Assembly: GCF_014640535.1 (NCBI RefSeq)
Contig: NZ_BMHD01000001.1
Location: 3,027,474 to 3,091,473, forward strand
Source: Cnuibacter physcomitrellae
GTDB lineage: Bacteria > Actinomycetota > Actinomycetes > Actinomycetales > Microbacteriaceae
Direction: 5' to 3'
Length of the DNA: 64,000 nucleotides
Part shown: positions 20,972 to 36,516 of the stretch, in pieces
Numbering within the stretch: position 1 is the stretch's first letter
Layout: each line of letters begins with the position of its first letter
Translations under genes and position numbers: made by a program
Notes under the pieces: generated by a model
Database searches by the model: none
Told to the model about the DNA's origin: nothing
Seen by the model: the letters and a program-made list of their open reading frames with translations, nothing else

Positions 20972-21005
20972 CCTGTTTATCAGGTATAGTTTCCTGCATG
21001 CTAGG
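20972..21005. promoter_or_regulatory. Two IclR-type operator sites around the -10 of the ring-cleavage operon
   Basis: CCTGTTTATCAGG (20972-20984) and CCTGCATGCTAGG (20993-21005) are 21 bp apart, two helical turns. They flank TATAGT (20985-20990), the probable -10 for the 21036 operon, which fits repression. Sites of the same form occur at 34800 and at 36483/36504. Confidence 0.6.
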
Positions 21006-21035
21006 CAACGGCGTCGAGATACTCAGGCGCGACCG

Positions 21036-22646
21036 ATGAGGACGTCAGGGGCCGAGTCCTGCGACGTGATCGTGGTCGGCGCGGGCCCCGTGGGGATGAC
21101 GGCGGCTCTGCTGCTCGCCGCGCGCGGCGTCGACGTGGTCATCGCGGAGCGCAACCTGCAGACGAGCAACGACCCGAAGGCCATCAGCCTCGACGACGAG
21201 TCGCTCCGCTCGTACCAGGACGCCGGCATCGAGACGCAGGTGATGTCGGTCATCGTCCCGGGGACCGGCACGATGTACTTCGGCGCCGACGACAGGCCGC
21301 TCTTCCATGCCAGGGCCGCCGCGCCGTTCCGCAACGGGTTCCCGTTCAAGAACCCCTTCGCCCAGCCCGACCTCGAACGGGTGCTGATGTCCGCGCTCCT
21401 GGAGAACCCTCGAGTCCGCGTGCTGCTGGGGGCGCCCGTCGAAAGCATCCGCCTCCTGCCCGAGGGGGCCGAGGTCGTGACCGGGGGACCGTCACCACAG
21501 GAGATCCGCGCTCGCTACGTGCTCGGGGCGGATGGCGGCCGTTCGGCCGTGCGCTCCCTCATCGGGGCGACGATGAGCGGGCGCAGCCACGACGATGTCT
21601 GGCTCGTGGTCGACACCTCGGGAGATACCCGGACCGAGCGGTACGGCATGCATCACGCGCTTCCCGAGAGACCCCATGTCATCGTGCCGGGGCTCGACGG
21701 GCGGTGCCGGTACGAGTTCCGGCTGTTCCCCGGGGAGGGTGAGGCGGGGGAGGAGCCGCGGTTCGAGCTCATCGAGCGCCTGGTCTCGCAGTACCGTCCC
21801 CTCACGCCCGATCAGGTCGAGCGGGCGGTCGCCTACCGCTTCCACGGTCTCAACGCCGACCACTACCGGTACGGGCCCGTCTTCCTGCTCGGGGACGCGG
21901 CCCACATGATGCCGCCGTTCGCCGGCCAGGGGCTCAACTCCGGGCTCCGCGACGCGAGCAACCTCAGCTGGAAGATCGCCGAGCGCCTGAGGGGTCGTCT
22001 CTCGGATGCGGCCCTCGACTCCTACGAGACCGAACGTCGTCCTCACGCCGGGGCGGTCATCCGGAGCTCCGAGCGGCTCGGACGGGTCGTGATGACGACG
22101 AACCGCCGCCTGGCGGAGCACCGAGACGCCGTGGTGCGCGACGCGATGAGCACGATCGAAGGTCGCCGCTTCTTCGAGGAGATGCGGTACCGACCGGCCG
22201 CTCGATACCGGGACGGCCTCGTGGATGGCGACCATCCACTGGTGGGCGCGCAGATCGGGCAGCCGAGGGTCTTCGACTTCACCGTCCGCCGCACCGTGCC
22301 CTTCGACCGGATGGTCGGCACGGGCTGGGCGATCGCCGGCGTCGGCGTCGACTCGGTGGCGTGGGCGGCGATGGACCCCGTGGTCGAGCGCCTTCAGGCG
22401 GCCCGCATCAGCGTGCCTCTGGACGACACCATCGTCGTCGACGACCGTGTGCACGTGGCCATCGACCTCGACACCCTGCTCTACGCCGAGTTCGCCCCGG
22501 CCCGGGGCTCCTTCGTCGTCCTGAGGCCCGACCACTTCGTGGCGGCCGTCTGGACGCCGGACGAGAGGGAGCGTGCGGACGAGGCGCTCGAGCGCTGGGG
22601 GATCCCGGTCCGCGAGGCCGTCACCGATCCCCTGCCTGCCCCATGA
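21036..22646 (+). CDS. FAD-dependent aromatic hydroxylase, MhpA/TfdB-like (536 aa)
   Basis: Class A flavoprotein monooxygenase: a GAGPVG dinucleotide motif (15-20), E37 at the end of the second strand, the DG motif in YVLGADGGRSAVR and the FAD GD motif LLGDAAHMMPPFAGQGLNSGL near 285. The C-terminal thioredoxin-like domain (about 400-536) is kept. Such enzymes use NAD(P)H and O2 to hydroxylate a phenol, giving a catechol. It is the first gene of a tightly packed operon and immediately precedes an extradiol dioxygenase, so it most likely makes the catecholic substrate. It may act on a 3-arylpropionate or a similar compound; unproven. The start lacks a strong Shine-Dalgarno. Confidence 0.88.
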   Translation: MRTSGAESCDVIVVGAGPVGMTAALLLAARGVDVVIAERNLQTSNDPKAISLDDESLRSYQDAGIETQVMSVIVPGTGTMYFGADDRPLFHARAAAPFRNGFPFKNPFAQPDLERVLMSALLENPRVRVLLGAPVESIRLLPEGAEVVTGGPSPQEIRARYVLGADGGRSAVRSLIGATMSGRSHDDVWLVVDTSGDTRTERYGMHHALPERPHVIVPGLDGRCRYEFRLFPGEGEAGEEPRFELIERLVSQYRPLTPDQVERAVAYRFHGLNADHYRYGPVFLLGDAAHMMPPFAGQGLNSGLRDASNLSWKIAERLRGRLSDAALDSYETERRPHAGAVIRSSERLGRVVMTTNRRLAEHRDAVVRDAMSTIEGRRFFEEMRYRPAARYRDGLVDGDHPLVGAQIGQPRVFDFTVRRTVPFDRMVGTGWAIAGVGVDSVAWAAMDPVVERLQAARISVPLDDTIVVDDRVHVAIDLDTLLYAEFAPARGSFVVLRPDHFVAAVWTPDERERADEALERWGIPVREAVTDPLPAP

Positions 22647-22705
22647 CCGAAGACCAAGGCGAAGGCCGGAACGCACCGACCCGCCGTGAGGAGAGGAGAG
22701 ACGTC

Positions 22706-23638
22706 GTGAGCGACGCGAATCGCATCACCCTGACCCAGAACGAGAACGCGGGCACCCTGCGGAGGACTGCCGTGTCGCACATCGGATTCCGTGTGCCCGA
22801 CGTCGCTGCCGCCGCGCAGTTCTACTCACGGGTGCTCGGGATGGAACGACACGGTGACCTGCCTGACGGCGGCCTGCGTCTCGGCTGGGGCAGCGGGCAT
22901 CACGTGATCGACCTCCTCCCGGGTGAGCAGGGTCTCGTGCACTACGGGTTCGAGGTGCGCGACGAGGACGGGGTCGCGGGCATCGCCGAGCGCCTGACCG
23001 CCGCCGGGTACGAGGTCGCGGACCTCGACGCCTCGTTCATCGACGCCGCCGTGGGCAGCCCGGCCGGTATCTCGGTGAAGGACCCCGATGGCACCGAGGT
23101 CCACTTCCACTCCGAGGTGCAGCGACAGGGTGAGAACAGCGCGGACCCCGGTCGGCGCCCCGTGAAGTTCCAGCACACCACCCTCACCACCACCGACGTC
23201 CCGGGTCTGGTGTCGTTCTACGTCGACACGGTCGGCTTCCGCATCTCGGACCAGCTGGCCGACGGACGGTTCTGCTGGCTCCGGAGCGACAAGGATCACC
23301 ACACCCTGGCGGTGGTCGACACCGGCCGGTCGGGCGACATCGACCACTACTCGTACGACCTCGCCGAGTGGGAGGACTTCAAGGCCTGGTGCGACCGGCT
23401 CTCCGAGCTCGACGTGGACGTGCAGTGGGGGCCAGGACGCCACGGACCGGGCAACAACCTCTTCGTCTTCTTCGACGATCCTGCGGGGAACCACATCGAG
23501 CTGTCCGCCGAGATGGAGAAGTTCTGGGACGACCGGGTGGCCTACGAGCCGCGTCGGTGGCAGCCCATCCCGCACAGCGTGAACCTCTGGGGCGGTCAGA
23601 CCCCGACCTGGCGTCGCACGAGCGAGGCGCGCGTCTGA
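22706..23638 (+). CDS. Extradiol (meta-cleavage) catechol dioxygenase, type I VOC fold
   Basis: Two VOC modules, as in 2,3-dihydroxybiphenyl and catechol 2,3-dioxygenases. In the C-terminal module the Fe(II) ligands are H157 (FQHTTL), H214 (IDHYSYD) and E265 (NHIELSAEME), all present, so the enzyme should be active. GTG 22706 has GAGGAGAGGAGAG upstream; ATG 22643, overlapping the previous stop, would add 21 residues and is an alternative. It opens the ring of the catechol made by the 21036 hydroxylase next to the diol. The downstream FAH-family protein fits as the next enzyme. Confidence 0.87.
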   Translation: MSDANRITLTQNENAGTLRRTAVSHIGFRVPDVAAAAQFYSRVLGMERHGDLPDGGLRLGWGSGHHVIDLLPGEQGLVHYGFEVRDEDGVAGIAERLTAAGYEVADLDASFIDAAVGSPAGISVKDPDGTEVHFHSEVQRQGENSADPGRRPVKFQHTTLTTTDVPGLVSFYVDTVGFRISDQLADGRFCWLRSDKDHHTLAVVDTGRSGDIDHYSYDLAEWEDFKAWCDRLSELDVDVQWGPGRHGPGNNLFVFFDDPAGNHIELSAEMEKFWDDRVAYEPRRWQPIPHSVNLWGGQTPTWRRTSEARV

Positions 23639-24462
23639 TGGCCTACGTCAGCTACATCGTGGATGGCCTCTGGCACGTAGGCGTCCTGGACGGCGACGGG
23701 ATCATCCCGTTGGAGGGCGTCGAGGCCATCGGGCCCGACACAGGGATCGACGAGCTCGCGGCGGCACCGCGTCGGGACGACCTGCGGACCGGTCGCGACC
23801 AGGTCGAGCTGCTCCCGTCGAGCCCTCGCCCGAACAAGATCTTCTGCGTGGGGCTCAACTACTCCTCGCACATCGAGGAGACCAAGCGCGATCTCCCGAC
23901 CTACCCCGTGCTGTTCCCCAAGTTCGCCTCGAACCTGGTCAGCGCCGACGCCCCGATCGTGGCGCCCCCGGAGTCGACCCAGGTCGACTACGAGGGTGAG
24001 CTCGCCGTGATCATCGGCAGGGCAGGGCGACGCATCCGCAGGGAGGATGCGCTCGACCACGTGCTCGGCTACAGCGTCGCGAACGACGTGACGATGCGCG
24101 ACTACCAGTACAAGACCCATCAATGGACCCAGGGCAAGGCCTGGGACTCGTCGACGCCCCTGGGGCCGGTCGTGGTGACACCGGACGAGGTCGACCTCAC
24201 GGCGGCGGGCATCCGCACCACGCTGAACGACGAGGTGGTCCAGGACTCCGACCTGTCGAAGCTGATCTTCGACATCCCGACGCTGATCGCGACGGTGTCG
24301 GAGTTCACCGTCCTCGAACCGGGCGACGTCATCCTCACCGGCACGCCCGGGGGAGTGGGCTACCGCCGCGACCCGCAGCTGTTCCTCCACCCGGGCGACC
24401 GGGTGAGCGTCGAGATCGAGGGTGTCGGGCGGATCGACAGCGTCGTGGTCGCGGACGCCTGA
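23638..24462 (+). CDS. Fumarylacetoacetate hydrolase family protein (274 aa)
   Basis: The metal site of the FAH fold is visible: E119 and E121 in DYEGELAVI and D150 in VANDVTMRD, plus KTHQWTQGKAWDSSTPLGP and the TGTPGGVG loop. The family contains acylpyruvases, 2-hydroxymuconate decarboxylases/hydratases and C-C hydrolases. In a meta-cleavage operon lacking an alpha/beta C-C hydrolase it probably processes the ring-opened product. It overlaps the dioxygenase stop by 1 nt (TGATG), indicating tight translational coupling. Confidence 0.87.
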   Translation: MAYVSYIVDGLWHVGVLDGDGIIPLEGVEAIGPDTGIDELAAAPRRDDLRTGRDQVELLPSSPRPNKIFCVGLNYSSHIEETKRDLPTYPVLFPKFASNLVSADAPIVAPPESTQVDYEGELAVIIGRAGRRIRREDALDHVLGYSVANDVTMRDYQYKTHQWTQGKAWDSSTPLGPVVVTPDEVDLTAAGIRTTLNDEVVQDSDLSKLIFDIPTLIATVSEFTVLEPGDVILTGTPGGVGYRRDPQLFLHPGDRVSVEIEGVGRIDSVVVADA

Positions 24463-25865
24463 TGTCGGGCCAGCTTCGGACGGTCGACGTCGTCGAGGGC
24501 TTCACCGGGCGGCTCATCACCCCCGGTGATGGGGACTACGACGAGGCCCGCACGATCTGGAACGCCATGATCGATCGCAGGCCGAGCCACATCGCCCGGT
24601 GTCGGACGACCGACGACGTCGTCGCCGTGCTGGCGTGGGCGCGGGCGGGCGACCGCGAGGTCGCGGTGCGCGGAGGCGGGCACAGCATCCCCGGGCACAG
24701 CATGATCGACGACGGTGTGGTGATCGACCTCTCGCCGATGGACTCGGTCGAGGTCGACGAGGATGCTCTGGTCGTCCGTGTCGCCGGGGGATGCCTGCTC
24801 GGCGACGTCGACGCGGCCACCCAGGCCCACGGACTCGCCACCCCGGCCGGGGCGATCTCGCACACCGGGGCCGGAGGCCTGATCCTCGGCGGTGGGCTGG
24901 GCTGGACGATGCGCAAGTACGGATTGACGATCGACAACCTCCTGTCGGCGACCGTCGTCCTCGCCGACGGGGAGGTCGTCACCGCGTCGGAGGACGAGCA
25001 TCCGGACCTCTTCTGGGCCCTCCGCGGAGGGGGAGGCAACTTCGGGGTGGTCACGGAGTTCGTGCTCCGCCTCCACCCCCGCGGGCCGGTCTACCTGGCG
25101 GCCACCGCCTTCTCTATCGAGGACTCCGCCGTCGTCCTGCGGGCCATGGCTGCTCACATGCCCACGGCGGACGACGATCTGGTGTGGTCGGCGTTCTTCC
25201 GGAAGCTTCCCGACTTCCCCTGGGCTCCGCCCGACCGGGTGGGGGAACCGGTGCTGCTGGCCCCCCTCGCCTGGCTCGGCGACCACGACGAGGGCGCCCG
25301 GGAGATCGACCGGATCCTCCAGGATCTCGGGGTGGACCCCCTCGCATCCGCACGCGGTCCGATCGAGTACGTCGACCTGCAGCGTCTCAACGACGAGCTG
25401 AACGGGCACGGGCACTGGAACTACCACAAGTCGGGCTTCCTGCGTGATCTCGACGACGACACGATCGCGTCGCTCGTGCGCTGCGGTGCGAGGATCGCGT
25501 CCGCGAACTCCCAGCTCGAGGTGCTGTCGATGGGCGGCCTGATCTCGCGGATCGACGAGAGCTCGACCGCGTTCGCGCATCGCGACGAGCTCTGGCCGGT
25601 GAACGTGTGCGGCATCTGGCGCCCCGAGGAGAGCGCGGAGGACAACCTCGCCTGGGTGAGGACGACCTGGAGCGACCTCGAGGACCATCTGCGAGCGGGG
25701 TCCTACATGAACTTCGGCGGCAGCGACGCGAGCGGGGACGAGCAGCGCGAGAGCTACGGCGAGACGTGGACACGCCTGCGCGAGGTGAAGACCCGGTACG
25801 ACCCCGACAACGTGTTCCGGCACAACGCGAACATCCCTCCGCTGACGTCGGGGGCGATCCGATGA
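24462..25865 (+). CDS. BBE-type FAD-linked oxidase (467 aa)
   Basis: Berberine-bridge-enzyme-like flavoprotein: PCMH FAD domain at about 40-210 with RGGGHSIPGHS, whose His is the usual 8-alpha covalent FAD anchor, and C-terminal BBE motif YDPDNVFRHNANIPP. The position that carries the second flavin linkage (Cys) in bicovalent members reads ISHTGAGGLILGGG here, without Cys, so a single covalent link is predicted. These enzymes oxidise alcohols, sugars or phenolic benzylic positions with O2. It starts 1 nt into the upstream stop codon and is inside the operon; its substrate is an intermediate of unknown structure. Confidence 0.85.
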   Translation: MSGQLRTVDVVEGFTGRLITPGDGDYDEARTIWNAMIDRRPSHIARCRTTDDVVAVLAWARAGDREVAVRGGGHSIPGHSMIDDGVVIDLSPMDSVEVDEDALVVRVAGGCLLGDVDAATQAHGLATPAGAISHTGAGGLILGGGLGWTMRKYGLTIDNLLSATVVLADGEVVTASEDEHPDLFWALRGGGGNFGVVTEFVLRLHPRGPVYLAATAFSIEDSAVVLRAMAAHMPTADDDLVWSAFFRKLPDFPWAPPDRVGEPVLLAPLAWLGDHDEGAREIDRILQDLGVDPLASARGPIEYVDLQRLNDELNGHGHWNYHKSGFLRDLDDDTIASLVRCGARIASANSQLEVLSMGGLISRIDESSTAFAHRDELWPVNVCGIWRPEESAEDNLAWVRTTWSDLEDHLRAGSYMNFGGSDASGDEQRESYGETWTRLREVKTRYDPDNVFRHNANIPPLTSGAIR

Positions 25866-26752
25866 GGGAGCTGCGCGGGAGGACCGCGTTCGTGACCGGC
25901 GGCGACAGCGGCATCGGTCTCGGGATCGCCCGGGCCCTCGTGGGCGAAGGGGTTCGGGTCGCCCTGTGCGGCCTCACCGAGTCCTCCGTGCAGACCGCCG
26001 TCGACGAGCTCTCGGCCCGGACCGGCGGGCAGGTCGAGGTCGAGGGGTACGTGCTCGACGTCCGTGACCGCGACGCCCTCGAGGCGGTCGCTGAGCAGCT
26101 GGACGAGTCGTACGGCGGCATCGACATCCTGGTCAACAACGCGGGGGTCGGGTTCCTGACGCCCACCGTCGAGGCGGGCTTCGAGCAGTGGGACTGGGTG
26201 CTCGGAATCAACCTGACCGGCGTCTTCAACGGGGTCAGGACGTTCGTGCCCCGGATGCTCGCGTCCGGCAGGGACGGACACGTCGTGTCGACCGCCTCGA
26301 TCGGCGGCCTGCTCGGGACTCCCGGCGGTCTCTACGTGGCGGCGAAGTTCGGGGTGGTGGGCCTCATGGAGGCACTGCGCACCGAGCTCCACGGCACCGG
26401 CATCGGGGTCTCGGTCCTGGCGCCGGGGATCGTGCGCACGAACATCGCCCACGGGCCGCGCCCGCCCGGAGTCGAGGCGAGCGAGTCGCCCGGCGGTGCT
26501 TCGCTCGACGAGCTCTACCAGGCGCCCCTCGAGCCCGACGACGTGGGGCGGGCCGTGGTCGCCGGCATCCTGAACGACGACCTCTACATCCTGACCCACG
26601 GCGAGCACCGGCCGTTCCTGGCCGAGCGCTTCGAGGCGATCCTCGCGTCGCTGCCCCCCGAGCCGGCAGACGAGCGGCGAAGCGCCGTCGAGCGCACCGT
26701 GCTCGCCAACCCGGTCTACTCCGAGGCCGTCGCCCGCAGGGAGGCTCGGTGA
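25862..26752 (+). CDS. SDR dehydrogenase, LigD/LigL-like C-alpha dehydrogenase subfamily
   Basis: Classical SDR with TGGDSGIG (12-19), NNAG (92-95) and the active-site set S146, Y158, K162 (YVAAK). Beyond the core, the segments WDWVLGINLTGVFNGV, FVPRMLASGRDGHVVSTASIGG, GIGVSVLAPGIVRTNIA and the C-terminal LEPDDVGRAVVAGILNDD with ERFEAILASLP match what I recall of sphingomonad LigD/LigL/LigN enzymes, which oxidise the benzylic alcohol of lignin beta-aryl ethers. Hydroxysteroid dehydrogenases also share parts of this pattern, so the substrate is inference. Overlaps both neighbours by 4 nt. Confidence 0.82.
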   Translation: MRELRGRTAFVTGGDSGIGLGIARALVGEGVRVALCGLTESSVQTAVDELSARTGGQVEVEGYVLDVRDRDALEAVAEQLDESYGGIDILVNNAGVGFLTPTVEAGFEQWDWVLGINLTGVFNGVRTFVPRMLASGRDGHVVSTASIGGLLGTPGGLYVAAKFGVVGLMEALRTELHGTGIGVSVLAPGIVRTNIAHGPRPPGVEASESPGGASLDELYQAPLEPDDVGRAVVAGILNDDLYILTHGEHRPFLAERFEAILASLPPEPADERRSAVERTVLANPVYSEAVARREAR

Positions 26753-27525
26753 GCCGTCGTCCGGGAGCCAGACAGCTCGAGGGCTCCGTCAGCCTCATCA
26801 CCGGGGGTGGCGCGGGCATCGGGCGCGCCACCGCACTGCTCTTCGCCGAGGAGGGCGCCGCGGTCGTGGTGGCCGACCGCGACGCGGTGGCGGCCCTCGA
26901 CGTCGCCGACGAGATCGCGGCCGAGGGTGGCACAGCGCTCGGCCTCCACGTCGACGTGGCCGACGAGCAGAGCGTGCGCGACCTGGTCGATGCTGCGGTC
27001 GCGCGGTTCGGAAAGCTCGACTCCGCCTTCAACAACGCGGGCATCGCCCCGCCCGGCGCCGCCGTCCAGGACATCAACGCGGAGGACTGGGACCTCGTCC
27101 AGCGGGTCAACCTGCGCGGGGTGTGGCTGTGCCTCACGTACGAGCTGAAGCACATGCTCGCGCGCGGCACGGGATCGATCGTGAACAGCGCGTCGGTCGC
27201 CGGGCTGGTCGGCAACCCCGGGTCCGCCGGGTACTCGGCGGCCAAGCACGGGGTGATCGGGCTGACCCGGACCGCGGCCGCCGAGCACGGACGCCACGGT
27301 GTGCGGATCAACGCCATCGCGCCGGGGCTCACCGGCACGGAGATGGTGCGTCGCCTGATGGCGGAGGGGGTCATCGACCCGGAGACGGCCACGGCCAGGA
27401 TGCCGCTCGGACGCCTCGCCGAGCCGCGGGAGATCGCGGAGGCGGCGCTCTGGCTGGCGTCGCCCCGGTCGAGCTTCGTGACGGGGAGCGTGCTCACCGT
27501 CGACGGAGGCGAGACGGCAGTCTGA
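26749..27525 (+). CDS. SDR family NAD(P)-dependent oxidoreductase (258 aa)
   Basis: FabG-like classical SDR: TGGGAGIG nucleotide motif, NNAG, SVAGLVG...YSAAKHG catalytic Ser/Tyr/Lys, and the C-terminal GSVLTVDGG tail of the standard family, unlike the preceding LigD-like member. GTG 26749 overlaps the upstream stop (GTGA). Together the two SDRs suggest successive oxidation of two alcohol groups, or removal of a ketone, in the same compound. Cofactor NAD is likely given the acidic residue after the second strand (VVADRD). Confidence 0.87.
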   Translation: MSRRPGARQLEGSVSLITGGGAGIGRATALLFAEEGAAVVVADRDAVAALDVADEIAAEGGTALGLHVDVADEQSVRDLVDAAVARFGKLDSAFNNAGIAPPGAAVQDINAEDWDLVQRVNLRGVWLCLTYELKHMLARGTGSIVNSASVAGLVGNPGSAGYSAAKHGVIGLTRTAAAEHGRHGVRINAIAPGLTGTEMVRRLMAEGVIDPETATARMPLGRLAEPREIAEAALWLASPRSSFVTGSVLTVDGGETAV

Positions 27526-27562
27526 ACCCGCCGGCATCGACCGGCACGAGGAGTCGTCCACA

Positions 27563-29266
27563 ATGGGCGGCACGGCGAAACGGAGCAAGGCAATGGCAGT
27601 CACCGGTGGAGAGCTGGTCATCCGGGCCCTGGAGCGCGCCGGCGTCGACGTGGCGTTCGGCATCAACGGCGCACACGTCGACAGCATGTACCAGGCGGCC
27701 CTGGACCGCTCCTTCCGCATCGTCGACACCCGTCACGAGATGAACGCCGGACACGCTGCCGAGGGGTACGCCCGGGCGGGACACCGATTGGGCGTCGCGC
27801 TCCTGACCGCCGGCGGCGGCTTCACGAACGCGGTCACCTCGATCGCCAACGCGTACCTCGATCGCACGCCGGTGCTGTACATCGCCGCGTCGGGCCCGCT
27901 CGCCGTCGACGAGACGAACACGCTCCAGGCCGGGATCGACCAGGTCGCGATCGCGACGCCCATCACGAGGTGGGCGCACCGCATCACCCGCGCCGAGCTG
28001 ATCCCGAGGCTGCTCGCGCAGGCCATCCGCATCGCCACCCAGGGTCCTCGGGGACCCGTGCTGATCGACATCCCCTGGGACGTGCTGACCGCCGCGGTCG
28101 ACGACGACCTCGCGGACGAAGCGCAGGAGCTCGGCGCCGACTCCGTCCTCGCCGCACCGGGAGCGGACGCCGTATCGAGGATCCTCGACGGGCTGGCGGC
28201 GGCGGAGCGCCCCGTCCTGATCGCCGGCTCCGAGCTGGTCAGGAGCGAGGGCGGGGCGGCTCTGCGCCGCCTGGCAGAGCGGACCGGGACTCCGCTGTTC
28301 TCCGACACCGAGGCGCTGGGCGCCATCCGGGAGAGCCCGCTCTCCTACGGGCTGCTGCAGGGGCTGTTCGGACTCGACGAGGGCGAGCGGCCGGACCGCG
28401 TGATCCTCCTGGGGCTGCGGTTCGGGCTTGCGACCGCCCACGGGTCGGGGATCCTCATCCCGACAGGATCGGCCGTGGTCCAGATCGACAGCGACGCCCG
28501 AGAGCTCGGCCGGCTGCAGCCCATCGAGCTGGGTGTCCTGGCCGACGCGGGCGCCGCCGCGGCCGAGCTCGCGGAGGCGGCCGCTCGACGCGGGGACTGG
28601 CCCGACCGGTCCGCCTGGCAGAGGCGTCTGCGCGACCTCGTCGACGGACGGTTCGACGCGGTCACGGCTCAGGCCGTGCGCGACGATCGGATCCACCCGA
28701 TGGATGCGGTCACCGCGATCGCCGAGACCGTGCCCGCCGGGTCCGTCGTGGTCGCCGACGGTGCGCTGACGTACCTCTGGCTGTCGGAGACCATCTCCCG
28801 GGCACCCGTCGCCGACTACCTCTGCCACGGCTACCTGGGCTCGATGGGCGTCGGTGTGGGAACGGCGCTCGGCGCTCAAGCGGCCGACACCGGGAGGCCC
28901 GTGGTCCTCGTCACGGGGGACGGAGCGGTGGGCTACAGCCTCGCCGAGTTCGACTCGATGGTGCGAGCGGGGCTCCCGGTCGTCGTCGTCGTGCTGAACA
29001 ACCGAGCGTGGGGTGCGACCCTGCACGCTCAGGAGCTCCTGCTCGGACCCGATCGGGTGGTGAACAACCGCCTGGAGAACGGCTCCTACAGCGCCGTCGC
29101 GCGGGCGCTCGGAGCCGACGGCATCAACGTGACCGAGCTCGCCGACCTGGTCCCCGCGCTGGAGAGCGCGCTCGTGTCGGGCCGACCGACGTGCATCGAC
29201 GTGCAGGTCAGCCTCGCCCCGGTGCCGCCCGAGGAGAACGTCATCATGGGCGGCAAGCCCTTCTGA
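27563..29266 (+). CDS. ThDP-dependent enzyme, acetolactate synthase/benzoylformate decarboxylase type
   Basis: Three-domain thiamine-diphosphate enzyme. The catalytic Glu is E59 (RHEMNAGHAAEGYA) and the ThDP/Mg motif runs from GDG 452-454 to NN 479-480. The length (567 aa) is normal. Members include acetolactate synthase, benzoylformate decarboxylase and benzaldehyde lyase; position in an aromatic operon without a regulatory subunit gene argues against a biosynthetic acetolactate synthase. It could decarboxylate an arylglyoxylate or cleave an acyloin. ATG 27563 has AGGAG 10 nt upstream; ATG 27593 is an alternative with GGAG. Confidence 0.85.
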   Translation: MGGTAKRSKAMAVTGGELVIRALERAGVDVAFGINGAHVDSMYQAALDRSFRIVDTRHEMNAGHAAEGYARAGHRLGVALLTAGGGFTNAVTSIANAYLDRTPVLYIAASGPLAVDETNTLQAGIDQVAIATPITRWAHRITRAELIPRLLAQAIRIATQGPRGPVLIDIPWDVLTAAVDDDLADEAQELGADSVLAAPGADAVSRILDGLAAAERPVLIAGSELVRSEGGAALRRLAERTGTPLFSDTEALGAIRESPLSYGLLQGLFGLDEGERPDRVILLGLRFGLATAHGSGILIPTGSAVVQIDSDARELGRLQPIELGVLADAGAAAAELAEAAARRGDWPDRSAWQRRLRDLVDGRFDAVTAQAVRDDRIHPMDAVTAIAETVPAGSVVVADGALTYLWLSETISRAPVADYLCHGYLGSMGVGVGTALGAQAADTGRPVVLVTGDGAVGYSLAEFDSMVRAGLPVVVVVLNNRAWGATLHAQELLLGPDRVVNNRLENGSYSAVARALGADGINVTELADLVPALESALVSGRPTCIDVQVSLAPVPPEENVIMGGKPF

Positions 29267-29321
29267 GCGACCCCCGAGACCGCCGGGCGACCCGTCCGGC
29301 TCACTGAGAGATGGAGACAGG

Positions 29322-29840: not shown

Positions 29841-30571
29841 ACGCCGAGGTAGCTGCCTCGCAGCTCGTCGAGCGAGGCGGCGATCTCCGCGGCCGTTCCC
29901 TCGCGCACGATCCTGCCCCTGGACATGACGTAGGCTCGGTCGGCGATCTCGAGTGCGAGCCGGACGTGCTGCTCGACCATCAGGACCGAGCAGCCTGTCT
30001 CCTCCACGATCCGGCGGAACACCGGGAGGATCGACTCGACGATGATCGGCGCGAGTCCGAGGCTCATCTCGTCGACGATCAGCAGGGTCGGCCGCAGAGC
30101 GAGGGCGCGGGCGAGGGCGAGCATCTGCTGCTCGCCTCCCGAGAGCACCGTGGCCCGGCGGTCGAGGATGTCGCCGAGCTTGGGGAAGTACCCCAGCACC
30201 CGAGCGATGTCCTCGGGATCGCGCGAGGCGACCTTGAGGTTCTCCTCGACGGTCAGGCCGCCGAACAGCGAGCGGTCCTCCGGGACGTGAACGATGCCCA
30301 TCCGGGTGAGTGCGTCGGGGGACCTCTTGAGCAGGTCCCGCTGCTGGAAGAGCACGGTTCCCTTCATGAGGGGGATCAGGCCCGAGATGGCCAGCAGGGT
30401 CGTGGTCTTGCCTGCGCCGTTGGGGCCGAGGAGGCAGACGATCTCGCCGCGTCGCACGGTCAGGTCGACACCCTGGGTCACGGGCGTGCCGCCGTAGCCG
30501 ACGCTGACGGAGTCGAGCTGGAGGAGGACCTCGTCCGTCTCGACGGTCACGGGTGCGCTGGTGTCGGTCAT
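29825..30571 (-). CDS. ABC importer ATPase, LivF-like (248 aa)
   Basis: Branched-chain amino-acid-type (HAAT) ATPase: Walker A GPNGAGKTT, signature LSGGEQQM, Walker B LLIVDEMSLGL, and the LivF-like end ADRAYVMSRGRIVREGTA. It overlaps the LivG-like gene by 4 nt. HAAT importers often take up aromatic acids or amides rather than amino acids in catabolic clusters, and the operator upstream of this operon links it to the IclR regulon. Substrate is therefore probably the aromatic compound degraded here. Confidence 0.9.
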   Translation of the reverse strand: MTDTSAPVTVETDEVLLQLDSVSVGYGGTPVTQGVDLTVRRGEIVCLLGPNGAGKTTTLLAISGLIPLMKGTVLFQQRDLLKRSPDALTRMGIVHVPEDRSLFGGLTVEENLKVASRDPEDIARVLGYFPKLGDILDRRATVLSGGEQQMLALARALALRPTLLIVDEMSLGLAPIIVESILPVFRRIVEETGCSVLMVEQHVRLALEIADRAYVMSRGRIVREGTAAEIAASLDELRGSYLGVQSEG

Positions 30572-31323
30572 GCTTCGGCCTTCTCCTCGTCGGTGGTGGT
30601 TCCCAGGTAGGCCTTGATCACCGCGGGATCGGCGGCGATCTCGGCGGGCGTGCCCTGGGCGATCTGACGGCCGAAGTCGAGCACGTAGATGCGGTCGCAG
30701 ACGTCGAGGACGAGGTTCATGTCGTGGTCCACGAGGAGCACGGAGATCCCGTCCGCGGCGAGTCCGCGGAGCTGGCGACCGAGCTCGGCGCCCTCGGCAT
30801 CGTCGAGTCCGGCGCCCGGCTCATCCATGAGGACGAGGGCGGGGGATGCGACGATCGCACGGGCGACGCCGACGAGCACGCGCTGTCCGTGGGAGAGCTC
30901 CCCCGGCAGGCGCCCCGCGAGTCCGGCGATGCCGAGCCGGTCGAGCACCGGATCGATCTCCACCCGCTGCCGCCTGCCGCGGAGCCGATCAGCGAGCGGT
31001 GTGTGCCCGGCGCCGACCTTCACATTCTCGGACACCGTCAGATCCTCGAACAGGCTGACGGACTGCCAGGTACGGCTCAGGCCCAGACGGCTCCGCCGGT
31101 GGGCTCGCTCTCCCCGCAGCTCGTGACCGTTCAGCGTGATGGAGCCGGTCATCGGGGCGAACCCCGAGACGGCGTCGATGAACGAGGTCTTGCCGGCGCC
31201 GTTCGGCCCGATCAGACCCACGATCTCGCCGCGGTCGACATGCAGGTCGACGTCGCTCACGGCCTTCACACCGCCGTACGAGACCGACAGCTTGGACGAG
31301 ACCAGGACACTGCTCTCCGCCAT
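30568..31323 (-). CDS. ABC importer ATPase, LivG-like (251 aa)
   Basis: Walker A GPNGAGKTS, signature LSHGQRVLVG (His replaces the usual Gly in the LSGGQ core), Walker B ALVLMDEPGAGLDD and the LivG-like HDMNLVLDVCDRIYVLDFG. ATG 31323 is the start because the in-frame extension upstream lies within the permease C-terminus and is Arg/Ser-rich. The gap to the permease stop is 1 nt. It forms a heterodimer with the LivF-like protein. Confidence 0.9.
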   Translation of the reverse strand: MAESSVLVSSKLSVSYGGVKAVSDVDLHVDRGEIVGLIGPNGAGKTSFIDAVSGFAPMTGSITLNGHELRGERAHRRSRLGLSRTWQSVSLFEDLTVSENVKVGAGHTPLADRLRGRRQRVEIDPVLDRLGIAGLAGRLPGELSHGQRVLVGVARAIVASPALVLMDEPGAGLDDAEGAELGRQLRGLAADGISVLLVDHDMNLVLDVCDRIYVLDFGRQIAQGTPAEIAADPAVIKAYLGTTTDEEKAEA

Positions 31324-31324
31324 G

Positions 31325-33334
31325 TCACACCTCCACTCGGACGGGGGCGGCCGCCGCCGGCGCCGTCCGCTGCTTCCGCTTCGCGGCCCGTCGCGCGAAC
31401 TTGTCGCGGAAGAAGCCCGCGATGCCATCCGGATTGCCCACCACCGTGGCCAGCACGGCCACTCCCGCGATCAGGGTCTGGAAGGCCGAATCGATGTTGA
31501 GGAGGTTCGTGATGGTGTACATCATCACTCCCTGCGTCACGAGGAGTCCGCCGATCACCGCCCCCGAGACCGTCGTGATCCCGCCCAGGTAGGCGATCGC
31601 GAGGAACGAAATGGCGGTGAACTCGTCGAAGCGCGTCGCTGTGACGAGGCCGAAGTTGTACCCGTAGAGCGTGCCGGCGACACCGGCGATGAGCCCGGCC
31701 AGGCCGAAGGCGAGCAGCTTGGTGCTCACGACGCTCACCCCGGCCGCCGCGGCGGCCGCCTCGTTCGCGCGCACCGCGAGCATCCGGGCGCCGAGGGCGC
31801 TCCTGCGGACCGAGACCACGAGCAGGGCGATGAGGCACGTGATGATCAGGATGAACAGCGCGAACCCGGGACTGGGGACGCTCGTGCCGAGGTTCCAGAA
31901 CGAGTCCGTGGTACCGAGCTTGATGCCGAGGAACTCGGGTGGCGGCACGGTCGCAGCGGTCGTCCCACCACCCCAGTCGGGATTGCGGAACCACAGGCTC
32001 TGGATCGCGACCGCGCCGGCGAGGGTGACCACGGCGAGCTGCATGCCGCGCATCCGAAGGGCGGGCAGAGCCACGAGCAGGCTCACCGCCGCGGCGACCA
32101 GCACCGCGAGGACGGCACCCAGGGGGAAGCCGATCCCGGCGCCCAGCGCCAGCTTCGAGGTCACGAAGCCGGCGATGCCCGCGATCGCCATCTGACCGAG
32201 GGTGACCTGCCCGAGGTAGCCCGTGATCACGACGATCGACATGCAGACGATGGCCCCGATGAGGCTCGTGATCAGAGCCTGACGCCAGCCGTACGGGGCG
32301 AACGCGATGATGGCCAGAGCGAGGACGATGGCGACGGAGAACCGGATCAGGAGCTTGCGGGGCCGAGGCGCGCGCGGCAGCCGTGGTTGAGCCTCGGTGA
32401 GGCGGTCGGGCAGGTTGCGGCCGCGCACGAACAGCACGATCGCGATGATCAGGAACGGCAACACCTCCTTCACGCCCGGCAGGGGTGCGTTGTTGACGGT
32501 CGGGAACCAGTCGAAGCCTTGGGCGTAGGTGACCAGTGCCTGCGCCATGCCGATCCCGATCCCCGCGAGGGCGGCGACCCAGAAGGACGCGAAGCCGGCG
32601 AGCAGCACCGCGCTCAGCGCCGAGACGATGAACAGGCTCATCGCCGTGGGCTGAAGCCCGATCAGCGGGCTGACCAGCACGCCGATGAGACCGGTGATCA
32701 CGGAGGCGATGACCCAGTTGATCGCCTCGAGCCGGGCGGGGTTCACGCCGAGGAGCAGGGCCCCCTTGCGGTTGTCCGCCGCCGCGCGGGTCTTGATGCC
32801 GAACGAGGTCCGCCGATAGACGAACGTGAGTGCCGCAGCGGCGATCAGGGCGAGCACGAGGATGATGAGCCGGTCGAGCGGGAGCGAGAGACCCCCGATC
32901 GCGAGCGGGGTCTGGGGCAGCAGCGGCGAGACGACCCGGGTGTCGGAGCCGAACGTCAGCACGACGAGCGACTGGAGCACGAGCAGCACGCCCGAGGAGG
33001 CGACCACCTTGGCCAGGGCGCCGGCGTTCCGGAGCGGGCGATACACGAGGAGGTACTGGAGGTACCCCAACAGGGCGGCGATCGCCAGGCAGATCAGCAC
33101 GGCCAGCCAGCCGTCGATGCCCGATCCATCGCTCGTGAGCGGGATCTCGACGCCGAGGAACAGCCGTCCGCGGCTGGTCAGATCCCAGTACGCGTAGGCG
33201 ATGAAGGCCGCTGTCGCGCCCGCGGCGAAGTTGATGACACCGGACGCCCGGAAGGTCAGCACCAGGCTGAGCGCCATGGTGGCGATCAGGGCGCCCGCAC
33301 CCAGGCTGAGCAGGAGGAAGGTCAGGATTTCCAC
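31325..33334 (-). CDS. Fused LivH-LivM ABC permease (669 aa)
   Basis: Residues 1-300 correspond to the LivH permease (SLVLTFRASGVINFAAGA..., YRRTSFGIKTRAAADN) and about 330-650 to LivM (TSLIGAIVCMSIVVITGYLGQVTLGQMAIAG split at 350-380, RMRGMQLAVVTLAGAVAIQ, SALGARMLAVRANE, YLGGITTVSGA). A charged linker (EAQPRLPRAPRPRK) joins them. One polypeptide thus supplies both membrane halves, a fusion seen in some actinobacterial HAAT importers. A 15-bp hairpin separates it from the binding-protein gene upstream. Confidence 0.9.
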   Translation of the reverse strand: MEILTFLLLSLGAGALIATMALSLVLTFRASGVINFAAGATAAFIAYAYWDLTSRGRLFLGVEIPLTSDGSGIDGWLAVLICLAIAALLGYLQYLLVYRPLRNAGALAKVVASSGVLLVLQSLVVLTFGSDTRVVSPLLPQTPLAIGGLSLPLDRLIILVLALIAAAALTFVYRRTSFGIKTRAAADNRKGALLLGVNPARLEAINWVIASVITGLIGVLVSPLIGLQPTAMSLFIVSALSAVLLAGFASFWVAALAGIGIGMAQALVTYAQGFDWFPTVNNAPLPGVKEVLPFLIIAIVLFVRGRNLPDRLTEAQPRLPRAPRPRKLLIRFSVAIVLALAIIAFAPYGWRQALITSLIGAIVCMSIVVITGYLGQVTLGQMAIAGIAGFVTSKLALGAGIGFPLGAVLAVLVAAAVSLLVALPALRMRGMQLAVVTLAGAVAIQSLWFRNPDWGGGTTAATVPPPEFLGIKLGTTDSFWNLGTSVPSPGFALFILIITCLIALLVVSVRRSALGARMLAVRANEAAAAAAGVSVVSTKLLAFGLAGLIAGVAGTLYGYNFGLVTATRFDEFTAISFLAIAYLGGITTVSGAVIGGLLVTQGVMMYTITNLLNIDSAFQTLIAGVAVLATVVGNPDGIAGFFRDKFARRAAKRKQRTAPAAAAPVRVEV

Positions 33335-33349
33335 GAATCACTCGATTCC

Positions 33350-33384
33350 GGGGCATGCGGCGGGGGAGTCCCGCCGCATGCCCC
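33350..33384 (-). other. Perfect intercistronic hairpin between binding protein and permease genes
   Basis: GGGGCATGCGGCGGG (33350-33364) pairs perfectly with 33370-33384, 5-nt loop, in the 81-bp gap between the 33416 and 33334 ends. Hairpins here commonly stabilise or partly terminate the message so that binding protein exceeds permease. The sugar importer at 46.5 kb has the same arrangement. Confidence 0.7.
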
Positions 33385-33415
33385 TGGGTCGTCGTTCAGC
33401 TGGACCGTGCGGAGG

Positions 33416-34732
33416 TCACTTGCCGGGCAGGGCCAGGTCGCCGACGTCGAGACCCTTGCCGCCGGTCGGATCGGTCCATGTGCCGGAGCCCTCGTAGTTC
33501 ACGGGGAACGCCGCCGTGGTGCACAGGCTCTGCGCGCCCTGAGCCGCGTACTGGCCGCAGTCGATCTTCTGGGGGCCGACGAACACCGGCCCGGTGAAGT
33601 TGTGCACCGCATCCCGGATCGCCTCGACGGACAGGTTGTCGTAGCCGACCTGGTTCAGCGCCCGGACCTGGCTGACGAACATCTGGAAGGTCCCGTTGGC
33701 GCCACCCGCCCGGTTGGCATCCGGCGAATAGGCGTCCATCACGGCGTTGTAGAGCTGCACGTCGGGGTCCTCGACGCCGATGGGGCTCTTCAGCGGCTGG
33801 ATGTAGGTCCACTTCGGGTAGTCGCCGAGCGCGTCGGAGACCGAGGAGTCCTGGCAGAAGCCGAACGTCTCGACCGGGGCGGTCACGCCGAGCTGCTGGA
33901 GGGCTTCGGCGAACGGCACGCACGCGGTCGTGCTGCCGCTCATCACCACGGCATCGGCGCTCTGAGCGCCGGCGGAGGCGAGCGCGCTCGCCCACTCGGA
34001 GCTGTTGGTCGCCGGGACGGACTTGATGTCCATGCCGAACTGCGGGCCGAGCCCGGTGATGACCTGCGCGGCCGACGACGCGCCGGGGTCGGTGCCGTCG
34101 TAGACGAGCGCGATCTTCTTCGCCTTGAGGTAGTCGTTCGCGTAGACGACGACGCCCGGGCCGGTCGCGTAGGCGGCCGCCTCGTAGAAGGCGACGCCCG
34201 GCTGGTCGAGGTCGTTCGGGTTGAAGGTGCCCTGACCCACGACGTTCTTCGACTCACCGAGCGTCGTGTAGATGGGGCCGGTGCCCAGGACGGTCATCCC
34301 CAGCTGCACGGTGAGGATCTCGGGGTCGTTGGCGAAGTCCTGGGCGCACTTCTGTGCGTCCTCCTCGCCCTGCACGATGTTGCACTGGACGATCTCGACC
34401 GGGTGGCCGTCGACTCCGCCCAGCTGCTCGTTGATGAAGCGCACAGCGACCTGGGCGGCGTTCGTCGACTCGGGGAACGAGGGAACTCCTCCGTCGACGT
34501 TGATGAAGCCGATCTTCACCGGTGCGAGCGACGAGTCGGCGGCGCCGGCCTTGCCGCCGGTGTACTCGACGCCCAGGGCGATCTGGTCGGAGGTGAAGGT
34601 CGACGGGTCGACGGGCGTCGCCGCCGTGGTGGAGCCGCCGGACCCCGATCCGGAACAGGCGCTGAGCGCGAGCGCCAGGGCGAGCGCGGAGGCGACGACG
34701 AGCGGGGCGCTCCGTCTGAGGTGGGTCTTCAT
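33416..34732 (-). CDS. ABC importer substrate-binding lipoprotein, LivK-like (438 aa)
   Basis: Lipoprotein signal with lipobox LSAC (C26), then a periplasmic-binding type I fold: PVKIGFINVDGGVPSFPEST, AVRFINEQLGGVDGHPVEIVQCN, and four Cys in addition to C26. AAGGAG precedes ATG 34732. It delivers substrate to the fused permease. This subfamily binds amino acids, urea, amides and aromatic acids; the catabolic setting suggests an aromatic ligand. Transcribed from the promoter at 34833-34861 with an IclR-type operator downstream. Confidence 0.88.
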   Translation of the reverse strand: MKTHLRRSAPLVVASALALALALSACSGSGSGGSTTAATPVDPSTFTSDQIALGVEYTGGKAGAADSSLAPVKIGFINVDGGVPSFPESTNAAQVAVRFINEQLGGVDGHPVEIVQCNIVQGEEDAQKCAQDFANDPEILTVQLGMTVLGTGPIYTTLGESKNVVGQGTFNPNDLDQPGVAFYEAAAYATGPGVVVYANDYLKAKKIALVYDGTDPGASSAAQVITGLGPQFGMDIKSVPATNSSEWASALASAGAQSADAVVMSGSTTACVPFAEALQQLGVTAPVETFGFCQDSSVSDALGDYPKWTYIQPLKSPIGVEDPDVQLYNAVMDAYSPDANRAGGANGTFQMFVSQVRALNQVGYDNLSVEAIRDAVHNFTGPVFVGPQKIDCGQYAAQGAQSLCTTAAFPVNYEGSGTWTDPTGGKGLDVGDLALPGK

Positions 34733-34799
34733 GTTCGGGTCTCCTTGATGGCGTCATCGGCATCGACCGCGGACCGGATGGGGCCCGGGTGTTGCGTGT

Positions 34800-34861
34800 C
34801 CTGAATATCAGGCTACGCGTCTTATTTTTTGAAGAATAGAACTCGGCGAGAATCTCGTCAA
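34800..34861 (-). promoter_or_regulatory. Promoter and IclR-type operator of the HAAT importer operon
   Basis: On the reverse strand TTGACG (34856-34861), 17 bp, TATTCT (34833-34838) form a near-consensus promoter. CCTGAATATCAGG (34800-34812), a 13-bp palindrome, lies just downstream of the expected start point, fitting repression. The AT-rich stretch CTTATTTTTT at 34821, 21 bp away, may be a weak second site. Confidence 0.65.
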
Positions 34862-34895
34862 GAACGTCTTCCTGCTCCGCGACCCCGAAGACGAC

Positions 34896-34937: not shown

Positions 34938-34961
34938 CGAAGGCCCCTCGCCGGGGCTGGC

Positions 34962-36419
34962 TCAGAACGGGTAGTCGGCGATCTCGGATCGGACGGTGAG
35001 CCACTGGGTCTCCGTGAACGCCTCGATGTTCGCCTCGGCGCCCCCGAAGCGCGAGCCGGTGCCGGAGTCGCCGAATCCACCGAAGGGTGCGTTCGCCTCG
35101 TCGGCGACGGTCTGCTCGTTGATGTGGACCTTGCCCGAGTCGATGCGGTCGGCGAGGGTCATCGCCATCCCGACGTCTCCGAGGATGCTCACCGAGAGAC
35201 CGTAGGGGCTGCGACCGACGATCTCGACCGCCTCGTCCACGGTGCTGAACGGGATGACCGGGGCCACCGGTCCGAAGATCTCCTCGGACCAGGCCTCCAT
35301 CTCGGTGGTCAGGCCCGACAGTACGGTCGGCCGATAGAAGAGGCCCTCATGGGTCCCGCCCGCCGACAGGGTGCCGCCCTGCGCGACGGTGCGCTGCACG
35401 ATGCCGTCGATCCGCTCGACCTGGCCGGAGTCGATGATCGGACCGAGCGCGACCTGCTCGGTGGCGGGATCGCCGACAGGCAGGTGAGCAGCCTTCTCGG
35501 CGAGGAGCGCGACGTACTCATCGTGGAGCGACTCGTGCACGAGGTGGCGTCCTGTGGTCATGCAGATCTGACCCTGGTGGAGCCAGGAGCCGAAGGCGCC
35601 CGCCGAGGCGGCCTTGGCGAGGTCCGCGCCCGGGAGCACGATCAGGGCGTTGTTGCCCCCGAGCTCCAGATGGGCGCGCTTGAGGTGACGTGCCGCAGCC
35701 TCGCCCACCTTCCGGCCCGCCGGGGTCGAACCGGTGAACGACACGATCCGCACGGCGGGCGCTTCGACCAGCGCCGCGCCGACGTCCGCCCCACCGGGCA
35801 GGAGCTGCAGCACGCCGGCCGGCAGCCCCGCCTCCTCGAAGATGCGGGCGATGATCACGCCGCCCGACACCGTGGTCCTCGGGTCCGGCTTGAGCAGCAC
35901 GGCGTTGCCGAGCGCCAAGGCCGGGGCGACGGATCTGATCGAGAGCACGAGCGGGAAGTTGAAGGGCGAGATGACGGCCACGACGCCCGCGGGTCGGCGG
36001 CGCGAGAACGACCAGTGGTCGACGTTGGACGGGAGGACCTGACCGTGCGGGTGGGTGGGCAGCGCGGCGGCCTCGAAGCATTCGTCAGCCGCGGTCGCCG
36101 CCTCGATCCCGGCCTTCGCCGGGATGCTCCCCGCCTCTCGGATGACCCAGTCGATGATCTCCTCGGCGTGCTGCTGGAACAGGATGCCTGCTCGACGAAG
36201 GACGGCGGCGCGTTCGGAGGGGAGGGCTGCGGCCCACTCCTTCTGCGCACGGGAGGCGCCGGCCGCCGCCTCGGCGACGTCCTGGGGATCCGCGAAGCCG
36301 ATCTCCGCGAGGGTGTCGCCGGATCCCGGGGAGAGCACGGATCGAGTGCCGCCGCGGCCCTCGCGCCACTCCCCGGTGAAGATGGTCCCAGCCCAGGTGT
36401 TGTCTGTCAGAAGCGACAT
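34962..36419 (-). CDS. Aldehyde dehydrogenase, benzaldehyde dehydrogenase-like (485 aa)
   Basis: NAD(P)-dependent ALDH with general base E252 (LELGGNNA) and nucleophile C286 (HQGQICM). The N-terminal LTDNTWAGTIFTGEW and the GSIPAKAGIEAATAADE stretch resemble XylC/benzaldehyde dehydrogenases. It would oxidise the aromatic aldehyde left after carotenoid-oxygenase-type cleavage to the acid, an inference from context. AAGGAGG before ATG 36419. It is divergent from the esterase gene across two IclR-type operator sites. Confidence 0.85.
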   Translation of the reverse strand: MSLLTDNTWAGTIFTGEWREGRGGTRSVLSPGSGDTLAEIGFADPQDVAEAAAGASRAQKEWAAALPSERAAVLRRAGILFQQHAEEIIDWVIREAGSIPAKAGIEAATAADECFEAAALPTHPHGQVLPSNVDHWSFSRRRPAGVVAVISPFNFPLVLSIRSVAPALALGNAVLLKPDPRTTVSGGVIIARIFEEAGLPAGVLQLLPGGADVGAALVEAPAVRIVSFTGSTPAGRKVGEAAARHLKRAHLELGGNNALIVLPGADLAKAASAGAFGSWLHQGQICMTTGRHLVHESLHDEYVALLAEKAAHLPVGDPATEQVALGPIIDSGQVERIDGIVQRTVAQGGTLSAGGTHEGLFYRPTVLSGLTTEMEAWSEEIFGPVAPVIPFSTVDEAVEIVGRSPYGLSVSILGDVGMAMTLADRIDSGKVHINEQTVADEANAPFGGFGDSGTGSRFGGAEANIEAFTETQWLTVRSEIADYPF

Positions 36420-36482
36420 CCGATTCCTCCTTGAATCATCGAGTGATGGTCACACTACGTCGCCCCGTCGGGACAACGAGAT

Positions 36483-36516
36483 CCTGTTTATCGCACATGG
36501 TGTCCTGATTAATAGG
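36483..36516. promoter_or_regulatory. Paired IclR-type operator sites, esterase/ALDH divergent promoter
   Basis: CCTGTTTATCGCA (36483-36495, degenerate right half) and CCTGATTAATAGG (36504-36516) are 21 bp apart, the same spacing as at 20972/20993. They lie upstream of TAGCAT (36537-36542), the probable -10 of the esterase gene, and between the two divergent starts. Confidence 0.6.

What the first reader, a model, noticed from the sequence alone, without database searches (positions are those of the whole stretch)
20972..36516. IclR-type operator CCTG-N5-[C/T]AGG shared by three promoters, with a 21-bp repeat spacing
Sites at 20972, 20993, 34800, 36483 (half) and 36504. Two of the three promoters carry two sites exactly 21 bp apart. 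The sites flank or follow the -10 boxes at 21 kb and 34.8 kb. They tie the ring-cleavage operon, the HAAT importer and the esterase/ALDH pair into one regulon, most simply under the IclR protein at 20129.
Basis: partly seen in the sequence, partly recalled or inferred. Interest (0 to 1): 0.65.

Follow-up and report, generated by a model that had tools for sequence, protein, structure and literature searches.

The report
Conserved paired operator of IclR regulator
Three promoters in this bacterial gene cluster carry the same paired DNA switch site, and the same site occurs beside relatives of the neighbouring IclR-type regulator in many actinobacteria, so the ring-cleavage genes, an importer and an esterase/dehydrogenase pair are very probably controlled together by that one protein.

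Summary
The loose word CCTG-N5-YAGG alone means little (80+73 matches in the 4.35-Mb genome). The specific operator is a 15-bp palindrome, TCCTG-W5-CAGGA, in two copies exactly 21 bp apart. A tandem pattern allowing 3 mismatches hits the whole genome three times: exactly these promoters.

In 79 actinobacterial loci encoding a 50-64% identical IclR, TCCTG words on one strand lie 21 bp apart 62 times, against 3 each at 20 and 22 bp. The tandem occurs in 72 of 79 loci and in 0 of 24 shorter loci of other IclR proteins; within +-1.5 kb it is 41 of 79 against 0 of 24. Two other local regulators do not follow the operator (0 of 79).

Where a sigma-70-like promoter is recognisable (43 of 224), the pair starts at or just after the -10 box in 36, which favours repression by occlusion. 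Tandem IclR sites 18-22 nt apart are already described (PMC8222616). The TCCTG half-site and this regulon were not found in the searches made. Binding, effector and substrate remain untested.

The parts
20971..20985 (.). operator site 1 of the iclR / ring-cleavage operon promoter region (TCCTGTTTATCAGGT)
   Evidence: palindrome; within a 41-bp block identical in G204 with diverged immediate flanks
20992..21006 (.). operator site 2, 21 bp from site 1 (TCCTGCATGCTAGGC)
20985..20990 (+). -10-like box TATAGT between the two sites (its first base is the last of site 1)
   Evidence: read from the sequence, conserved in G204; no promoter passed the consensus scan here
34799..34813 (.). operator site of the importer promoter (TCCTGAATATCAGGC)
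   Evidence: matrix score 9.8 in a tandem of 25.9; also a tandem in G204
34833..34861 (-). sigma-70-like promoter of the binding-protein gene: TTGACG-N17-TATTCT
   Evidence: both boxes conserved in G204
36482..36496 (.). operator site with an intact left half only, between ALDH and esterase genes (TCCTGTTTATCGCAC)
   Evidence: a similarly degenerate right half before the G204 esterase
36503..36517 (.). operator site 21 bp further on (TCCTGATTAATAGGC)
20129..20908 (-). IclR-family regulator, proposed owner of the operator
   Evidence: HTH_IclR and IclR_C; clade conserved with the operator
21036..22646 (+). FAD hydroxylase, distant MhpA type
   Evidence: FAD_binding_3; NCBIfam MhpA models below cut-off
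22706..23638 (+). two-domain extradiol (VOC) dioxygenase
23638..24462 (+). fumarylacetoacetate-hydrolase family enzyme
24462..25865 (+). BBE-type FAD oxidase (no counterpart seen in the G204 operon)
25862..27525 (+). two SDR dehydrogenases (25862-26752, 26749-27525)
   Evidence: for both, for the first
27563..29840 (+). ThDP enzyme (27563-29266) and small VOC protein (29322-29840)
   Evidence: the small protein only
29825..34732 (-). HAAT-type importer: LivF, LivG, fused permease LivHM (31325-33334) and binding protein (33416-34732)
34962..36419 (-). aldehyde dehydrogenase
   Evidence: Aldedh
36549..37469 (+). alpha/beta-hydrolase (esterase type)
   Evidence: Abhydrolase_3

Best explanation
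The feature is the operator of the IclR-family regulator encoded at 20129-20908. Each operator is two 15-bp palindromes (TCCTG-W5-CAGGA, tolerant of one weak half) whose centres are 21 bp apart, two helical turns, so two dimers (a tetramer) can sit on one DNA face. With no inducer the protein covers the -10/start region and represses its own gene, the hydroxylase/ring-cleavage operon, the HAAT importer and the ALDH/esterase pair. A pathway substrate or intermediate is expected to release it, switching on uptake and breakdown together. Shown here: the sites, the exact 21-bp spacing, conservation with this IclR clade, and position at the -10 where a promoter is recognisable. Inferred: binding, tetramer, repression and inducer.
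For: Whole-genome tandem search: 3 hits, the three promoters. Training-free word count in 79 loci: TCCTG pairs at 21 bp 62 times, 3 at 20 and 3 at 22; TCCTG-to-CAGGA offsets include +10 (40), -11 (21) and +31 (18), the signature of two palindromes 21 bp apart. Matrix pairs in noncoding DNA: 150 at 21 bp against 0-14 at the other spacings from 14 to 35. Streptomyces-trained matrix on 44 loci of other genera: 93 at 21 bp against at most 12. Tandem in 72 of 79 clade loci (in 71 of them intergenic) and 0 of 24 other-IclR loci; within +-1.5 kb 41 of 79 against 0 of 24. Intergenic tandem in 19 of 23 genus labels. G204 keeps it before iclR/hydroxylase, binding protein, ALDH and esterase. -10 at offset -14 to -4 from the operator start in 36 of 43 recognisable promoters; the window's importer promoter fits (offset -4).
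Against: No binding data. The matrix began from twelve words, four from the window, and the hold-out training words were chosen with an all-loci matrix, so the hold-out is not fully independent. The 79 loci are the best 80 of 100 found (one merged), were found partly by a peptide pattern in the recognition helix, and are related (35 Streptomyces). Control loci are shorter (3.1-3.7 kb). 7 of 79 loci lack the tandem, and one of the 72 (L116) has only a weak one in coding DNA; in L006/L069 (Amnibacterium) similar sites read 22 bp apart. A strict consensus search of 299 family genomes hit two without a close IclR (G180, G245) besides G190, and missed the window itself. Only 43 of 224 operator-target pairs had a recognisable promoter, and the opposite strand gave 46. 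Some IclR proteins are activators (PMC8222616, section 4).
Confidence: 0.82

Rival explanations
1. The operator and regulon are real, but the IclR protein activates or has a dual role, as recalled for PcaU, PobR and MhpR.
For: IclR-family members include activators and dual regulators (PMC8222616, section 4). The best NCBIfam match is the PcaR/PcaU/PobR model, below cut-off. At the 21-kb and 36.5-kb promoters no sigma-70-like promoter passed the scan, which could fit a promoter needing help.
Against: The operator overlaps or directly follows the -10 box in 36 of 43 recognisable promoters, with its centre near +11, and the importer promoter has good -35 and -10 boxes. Activator sites normally lie upstream of -35 (established knowledge).
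Confidence: 0.2
2. The operator belongs to another local regulator: the PucR type at 17226-18494 or the second IclR-type protein at 43894-44688.
For: Both lie near the cluster and both are kept in G204 (86% for the second IclR; 76% for PucR over a cut fragment).
Against: Neither has a relative at 40% identity or more over 150 aa in any of the 79 loci, while 72 of those loci hold the tandem. The 79 loci were, however, selected by the first IclR.
Confidence: 0.05
3. Chance: GC-rich palindromes and common words.
For: The loose motif is at chance level.
Against: Tandem search: 3 hits in 4.35 Mb, all at these promoters. No position in 4.0 Mb of simulated sequence reached the score. The block is conserved with diverged immediate flanks and recurs in other genera.
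Confidence: 0.01

Closest known systems
IclR-family tandem operators (Suvorova and Gelfand 2021, PMC8222616)
   Same: Palindromic sites in tandem, centres 18-22 nt apart (94 orthologous groups), read there as agreeing with tetramer binding; regulons often hold aromatic catabolism and Liv importers.
   Different: Published group 1 is GKTYCRYW3-4RYGRAMC and group 2 TGRAACAN1-2TGTTYCA. Here position -6 is C in 408 of 528 half-sites (T in 86) where group 1 has T, and -4 is T in 331 of 528 (C in 171) where group 1 has C; of 264 distinct site words none fits the 15-bp odd-length group 1 core with fewer than 2 mismatches, 17 fit with 2. The paper's supplementary tables could not be read, so this group may already be in them.
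HutR of Corynebacterium resistens (GTCTGWWATWCCAGAC, Table 1 of PMC8222616)
   Same: Nearest half-site in that table by eye: CTG facing CAG around an AT-rich centre.
   Different: Six bases between CTG and CAG instead of five; TCTG rather than CCTG; histidine utilisation.
PcaR/PcaU/PobR subfamily (TIGR02431)
   Same: Best-scoring NCBIfam model for the protein; aromatic catabolism.
   Different: 128.2 bits against a cut-off of 284.75; different operator sequences (Table 1 of PMC8222616).
MhpR / mhp pathway of E. coli
   Same: IclR regulator beside an MhpA-like hydroxylase and an extradiol dioxygenase (mhp gene content recalled).
   Different: MhpR operator is GGTGCACCTGGTGCACA (PMC8222616 Table 1). 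Here the dioxygenase is VOC type and the hydrolase FAH type; the hydroxylase misses the MhpA cut-offs shown.

Membership tests
IclR family (regulator) | N-terminal HTH_IclR and C-terminal IclR_C domains | tested here: met
   PF09339 1.2e-12 and PF01614 3e-30, above gathering scores
IclR tandem operators (PMC8222616) | two palindromes with centres 18-22 nt apart | tested here: met
   21 bp at all three promoters and as the dominant spacing in 79 loci
IclR motif group 1 | GKTYCRYW3-4RYGRAMC | tested here: not met
   0 of 264 site words with fewer than 2 mismatches to the odd-length 15-bp core; the even-length form was not scored
IclR motif group 2 | TGRAACAN1-2TGTTYCA | not tested
   only compared by eye; no count was run
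PcaR/PcaU/PobR subfamily TIGR02431 | score above curated cut-off 284.75 | tested here: not met
   128.2 bits
IclR operator | bound by the cognate protein | not testable with these tools
   co-conservation only
MhpA 3-(3-hydroxyphenyl)propionate hydroxylase | score above an NCBIfam MhpA cut-off | tested here: not met
   five models shown, all below cut-off; nearest 384.8 against 546 and 358 against 390

The most novel reading that the evidence does not exclude
An undescribed, phylum-wide actinobacterial regulon. One IclR clade reads its own half-site, TCCTG, nearly always as a 21-bp tandem, and controls an uncharacterised ring-cleavage route (FAD hydroxylase, VOC dioxygenase, FAH hydrolase, often a carotenoid-oxygenase-type enzyme and an ALDH). 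Its importer differs between lineages (HAAT, MFS, other binding-protein types) while the operator stays the same.
Probability: 0.55. Interest if true: 0.55.

Novelty: new member of a known kind. Interest (0 to 1): 0.45.

Why it matters
It turns a sequence-only hunch into a testable regulon with a precise operator. The tandem is rare enough (3 in 4.35 Mb) to predict co-regulated genes by pattern search, and it links uptake, ring cleavage and side-chain enzymes of a route whose substrate is unknown. Its recurrence in 19 of 23 genus labels gives a handle for finding the substrate and a possible inducible promoter part. It also adds a half-site outside the published group 1 consensus, useful for work on IclR-DNA recognition.

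Tried and rejected
The loose motif CCTG-N5-YAGG as evidence on its own: rejected. The 53415 palindrome: GC-rich, no partner, rejected. An off-cluster member of the regulon at contig C3: rejected, inside a coding frame. Naming the substrate: solved-structure and NCBIfam comparisons give only general classes, and paper searches for the enzyme set listed 0, 1 and 2 papers, none of which I opened. Strict consensus search of 299 family genomes: 3 genomes hit, only one (G190) with this IclR, so it was too strict for this family and not fully specific. Plasmid records: one IclR relative (Embleya, 53.5%), no dioxygenase relative. Sigma-70 scans at 21 kb and 36.5 kb: nothing found. Paper searches for the operator. 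I saw listings and starts of abstracts only (one search lists 20 of 39 papers); the literal string CCTGNNNNNCAGG occurs in no held paper. One listed paper, PMC13273656, an IclR-related repressor of phenanthrene uptake and catabolism in Sphingobium by its title and term counts, was not opened. PMC8222616 was read in part: abstract, section 4, section 12 in full, and found passages; supplements not read.
Full report
WHAT WAS CHECKED. The five sites are present at the stated coordinates. As a bare word, CCTG-N5-YAGG is unremarkable: 8 window matches against a shuffle mean of 3.05, reached by 6 of 100 shuffles, and 80 forward plus 73 reverse matches in the 4,345,923-base genome. The specific form is not. 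CCTGNNTATCAGG occurs twice in the genome, both in this cluster. TCCTGNWTNNYAGG has 5 exact matches, four being these sites and the fifth inside a coding frame on contig C3.

THE OPERATOR UNIT. A search of the IclR protein in 299 family genomes gave close relatives in G204 (89%), G043 (59%), G231 (56%), G190 (53%) and G244 (51%); the next best was 33%. Upstream of the G204 gene a 41-bp block is unchanged while its immediate flanks diverge. G043 and G190 have different letters but the same design, TCCT-N6-YAGG twice, 21 bp apart. G231 reads 22 bp apart, and G244 shows no clear site (by eye).

WIDER SURVEY. A profile of the six proteins found 100 relatives in the genome collection, of which the best 80 were kept, 79 distinct loci, 50-64% identical, all titled as actinobacteria. 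One of the two peptide patterns used for that scan lies in the recognition helix. Without any trained model, TCCTG words on one strand lie 21 bp apart 62 times, against 3 at 20 and 3 at 22 bp; codon-phase spacings (multiples of three) run higher, up to 32 at 33 bp. TCCTG-to-CAGGA offsets peak at +10 (40), with -11 (21) and +31 (18). Other peaks, at +14 (33), -19 (23) and -7 (19), are not explained by the tandem. An iterated matrix gives TCCTG-W5-CAGGA; its pairs in noncoding DNA number 150 at 21 bp and 0-14 at the other spacings from 14 to 35. The matrix was started from twelve words, four of them from the window, but its final words come only from the 79 loci. Trained on Streptomyces words and tested on 44 loci of other genera it gives 93 at 21 bp and at most 12 elsewhere; the converse test gives 69 against at most 13. 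The training words had been picked with the all-loci matrix, so this is a partial hold-out.

SPECIFICITY FOR THIS IclR. The tandem occurs in 72 of the 79 loci, and within 1.5 kb of the gene in 41 of 79. It occurs in 0 of 24 loci of other IclR proteins, which hold at most about 1.5 kb on each side (Fisher p = 6e-7 for 41/79 against 0/24, relatedness ignored). Seven loci lack it: L064, L069, L081, L087, L098, L124, L141; in an eighth, L116, the only one is weak and inside a coding frame. By genus label, 19 of 23 have an intergenic tandem. The PucR-type protein at 17226 and the second IclR-type protein at 43894 have no relative of 40% or more over 150 aa in any of the 79 loci. Against exclusivity: a strict consensus tandem with up to 3 mismatches hit 3 of 299 family genomes, of which G180 and G245 lack a close IclR, and it missed the window. 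The G180 hit lies inside a long open frame; the G245 hit lies in front of a DeoR-like gene by my reading of its sequence.

THE THREE PROMOTERS. The best tandem scores in the 64-kb window are 34799 (25.9), 20971 (25.5) and 36482 (24.6), then 7.5. The importer promoter is therefore also paired, with a weak copy at 34820. With the Streptomyces-trained matrix no position in 4.0 Mb of simulated intergenic-like sequence exceeded 23, which all three real sites do. In the whole genome a tandem pattern with up to 3 mismatches finds exactly these three.

THE RELATIVE AS A TEST. G204 has much the same cluster: the matched proteins are 82-95% identical except the SDR fusion (63%), and the BBE oxidase has no match there. 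Its tandems lie before iclR/hydroxylase, before the binding-protein gene, before ALDH and before the esterase; the last two genes are not divergent neighbours there, and each has its own copy. A fifth lies before a second importer gene with two ABC ATPase domains in one protein.

WHAT THE REGULON CONTAINS. Among the 79 loci, relatives (>=40%) of the window's FAH enzyme occur in 67, of the hydroxylase in 61, of the carotenoid-oxygenase-type enzyme in 23, of ALDH in 23 and of the two-domain dioxygenase in 19. The 79 loci hold 167 tandems, 149 with a gene start within -40 to 350 bp. The commonest target groups are a small VOC protein (39 of 79 loci), IclR itself (21), FAH (18), the hydroxylase (13), ALDH (10) and an MFS transporter (10), then a binding protein (6) and others. 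Representatives of the small VOC, MFS and binding-protein groups were confirmed with Pfam; the labels of the smaller groups are my reading. Gene starts came from a simple home-made caller trained on window genes.

HOW IT PROBABLY WORKS. Of 224 operator-target pairs (exact duplicates removed; overlapping tandems and divergent targets counted separately; window and G204, G190, G231 stretches included), 43 show TTGAC-N16-18-TANNNT upstream of the start. In 36 of the 43 the -10 starts 14 to 4 bases before the operator, which puts the operator's centre at +10 to +20, mostly +11. The reversed control gave 2 of 224; the opposite strand gave 46 of 224, as would be expected if many operators lie between divergent genes, so strand is not resolved. 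The window's importer promoter has TTGACG-N17-TATTCT at offset -4, conserved in G204. At 21 kb a TATAGT box lies between the two sites. Occupancy there would block RNA polymerase, hence a repressor released by a pathway compound; this last step is inference.

COMPARISON WITH WHAT IS KNOWN. PMC8222616 (abstract, sections 4 and 12 and found passages read) reports tandem sites 18-22 nt apart for 94 orthologous groups and two consensus types. The spacing here is therefore ordinary for the family. The half-site is not in its Table 1 and differs from group 1 at two key positions; HutR is nearest by eye. The paper's supplements were not readable, so an earlier listing cannot be excluded. The listings of eight paper searches showed no title describing this operator or enzyme set; apart from PMC8222616 the listed papers were not opened.

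VERDICT. A real, conserved operator of a known architectural kind, with a regulator and regulon for which I found no description.

Noticed in passing
18634-20091: RPE65/carotenoid-oxygenase-type gene next to iclR; relatives (45-73% identical) sit in 23 of 79 IclR loci, and in 20 of the 35 Streptomyces loci together with an ALDH relative, suggesting the route starts with alkene cleavage to an aldehyde.
   Followed up: partly
L143:2395-3861: G204 has a second importer under the same operator, with two ABC ATPase domains in one protein, between the carotenoid-oxygenase gene and iclR.
   Followed up: partly
24462-25865: The BBE-type oxidase gene of the window's ring-cleavage operon has no match in the otherwise parallel G204 operon or at >=40% in the 79 loci.
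   Followed up: no
31325-33334: The permease of the window's HAAT importer is one 669-aa protein with two matched permease stretches, read as a LivH-LivM fusion.
   Followed up: no
38128-39801: 557-aa protein whose C-terminal half is an SDR; about 285 N-terminal residues have no Pfam match at E 0.001. It overlaps a flavin reductase gene.
   Followed up: no
43894-44688: A second IclR-type regulator (HTH_IclR only; 20% identical to the first) at the end of a luciferase-type monooxygenase/SDR/acyl-CoA-dehydrogenase gene row.
   Followed up: partly
L069 (Amnibacterium) and L006: The same kind of sites seem to be 22 bp apart (by eye), and iclR there faces the dioxygenase gene directly, without the hydroxylase.
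   Followed up: partly
L154: A near-consensus tandem (2 mismatches) in a genome without a close IclR, in front of a DeoR-like gene; chance or another regulator.
   Followed up: no
79 loci: TCCTG-to-CAGGA offset +14 is also high (33), as are -19 and -7; not explained.
   Followed up: no
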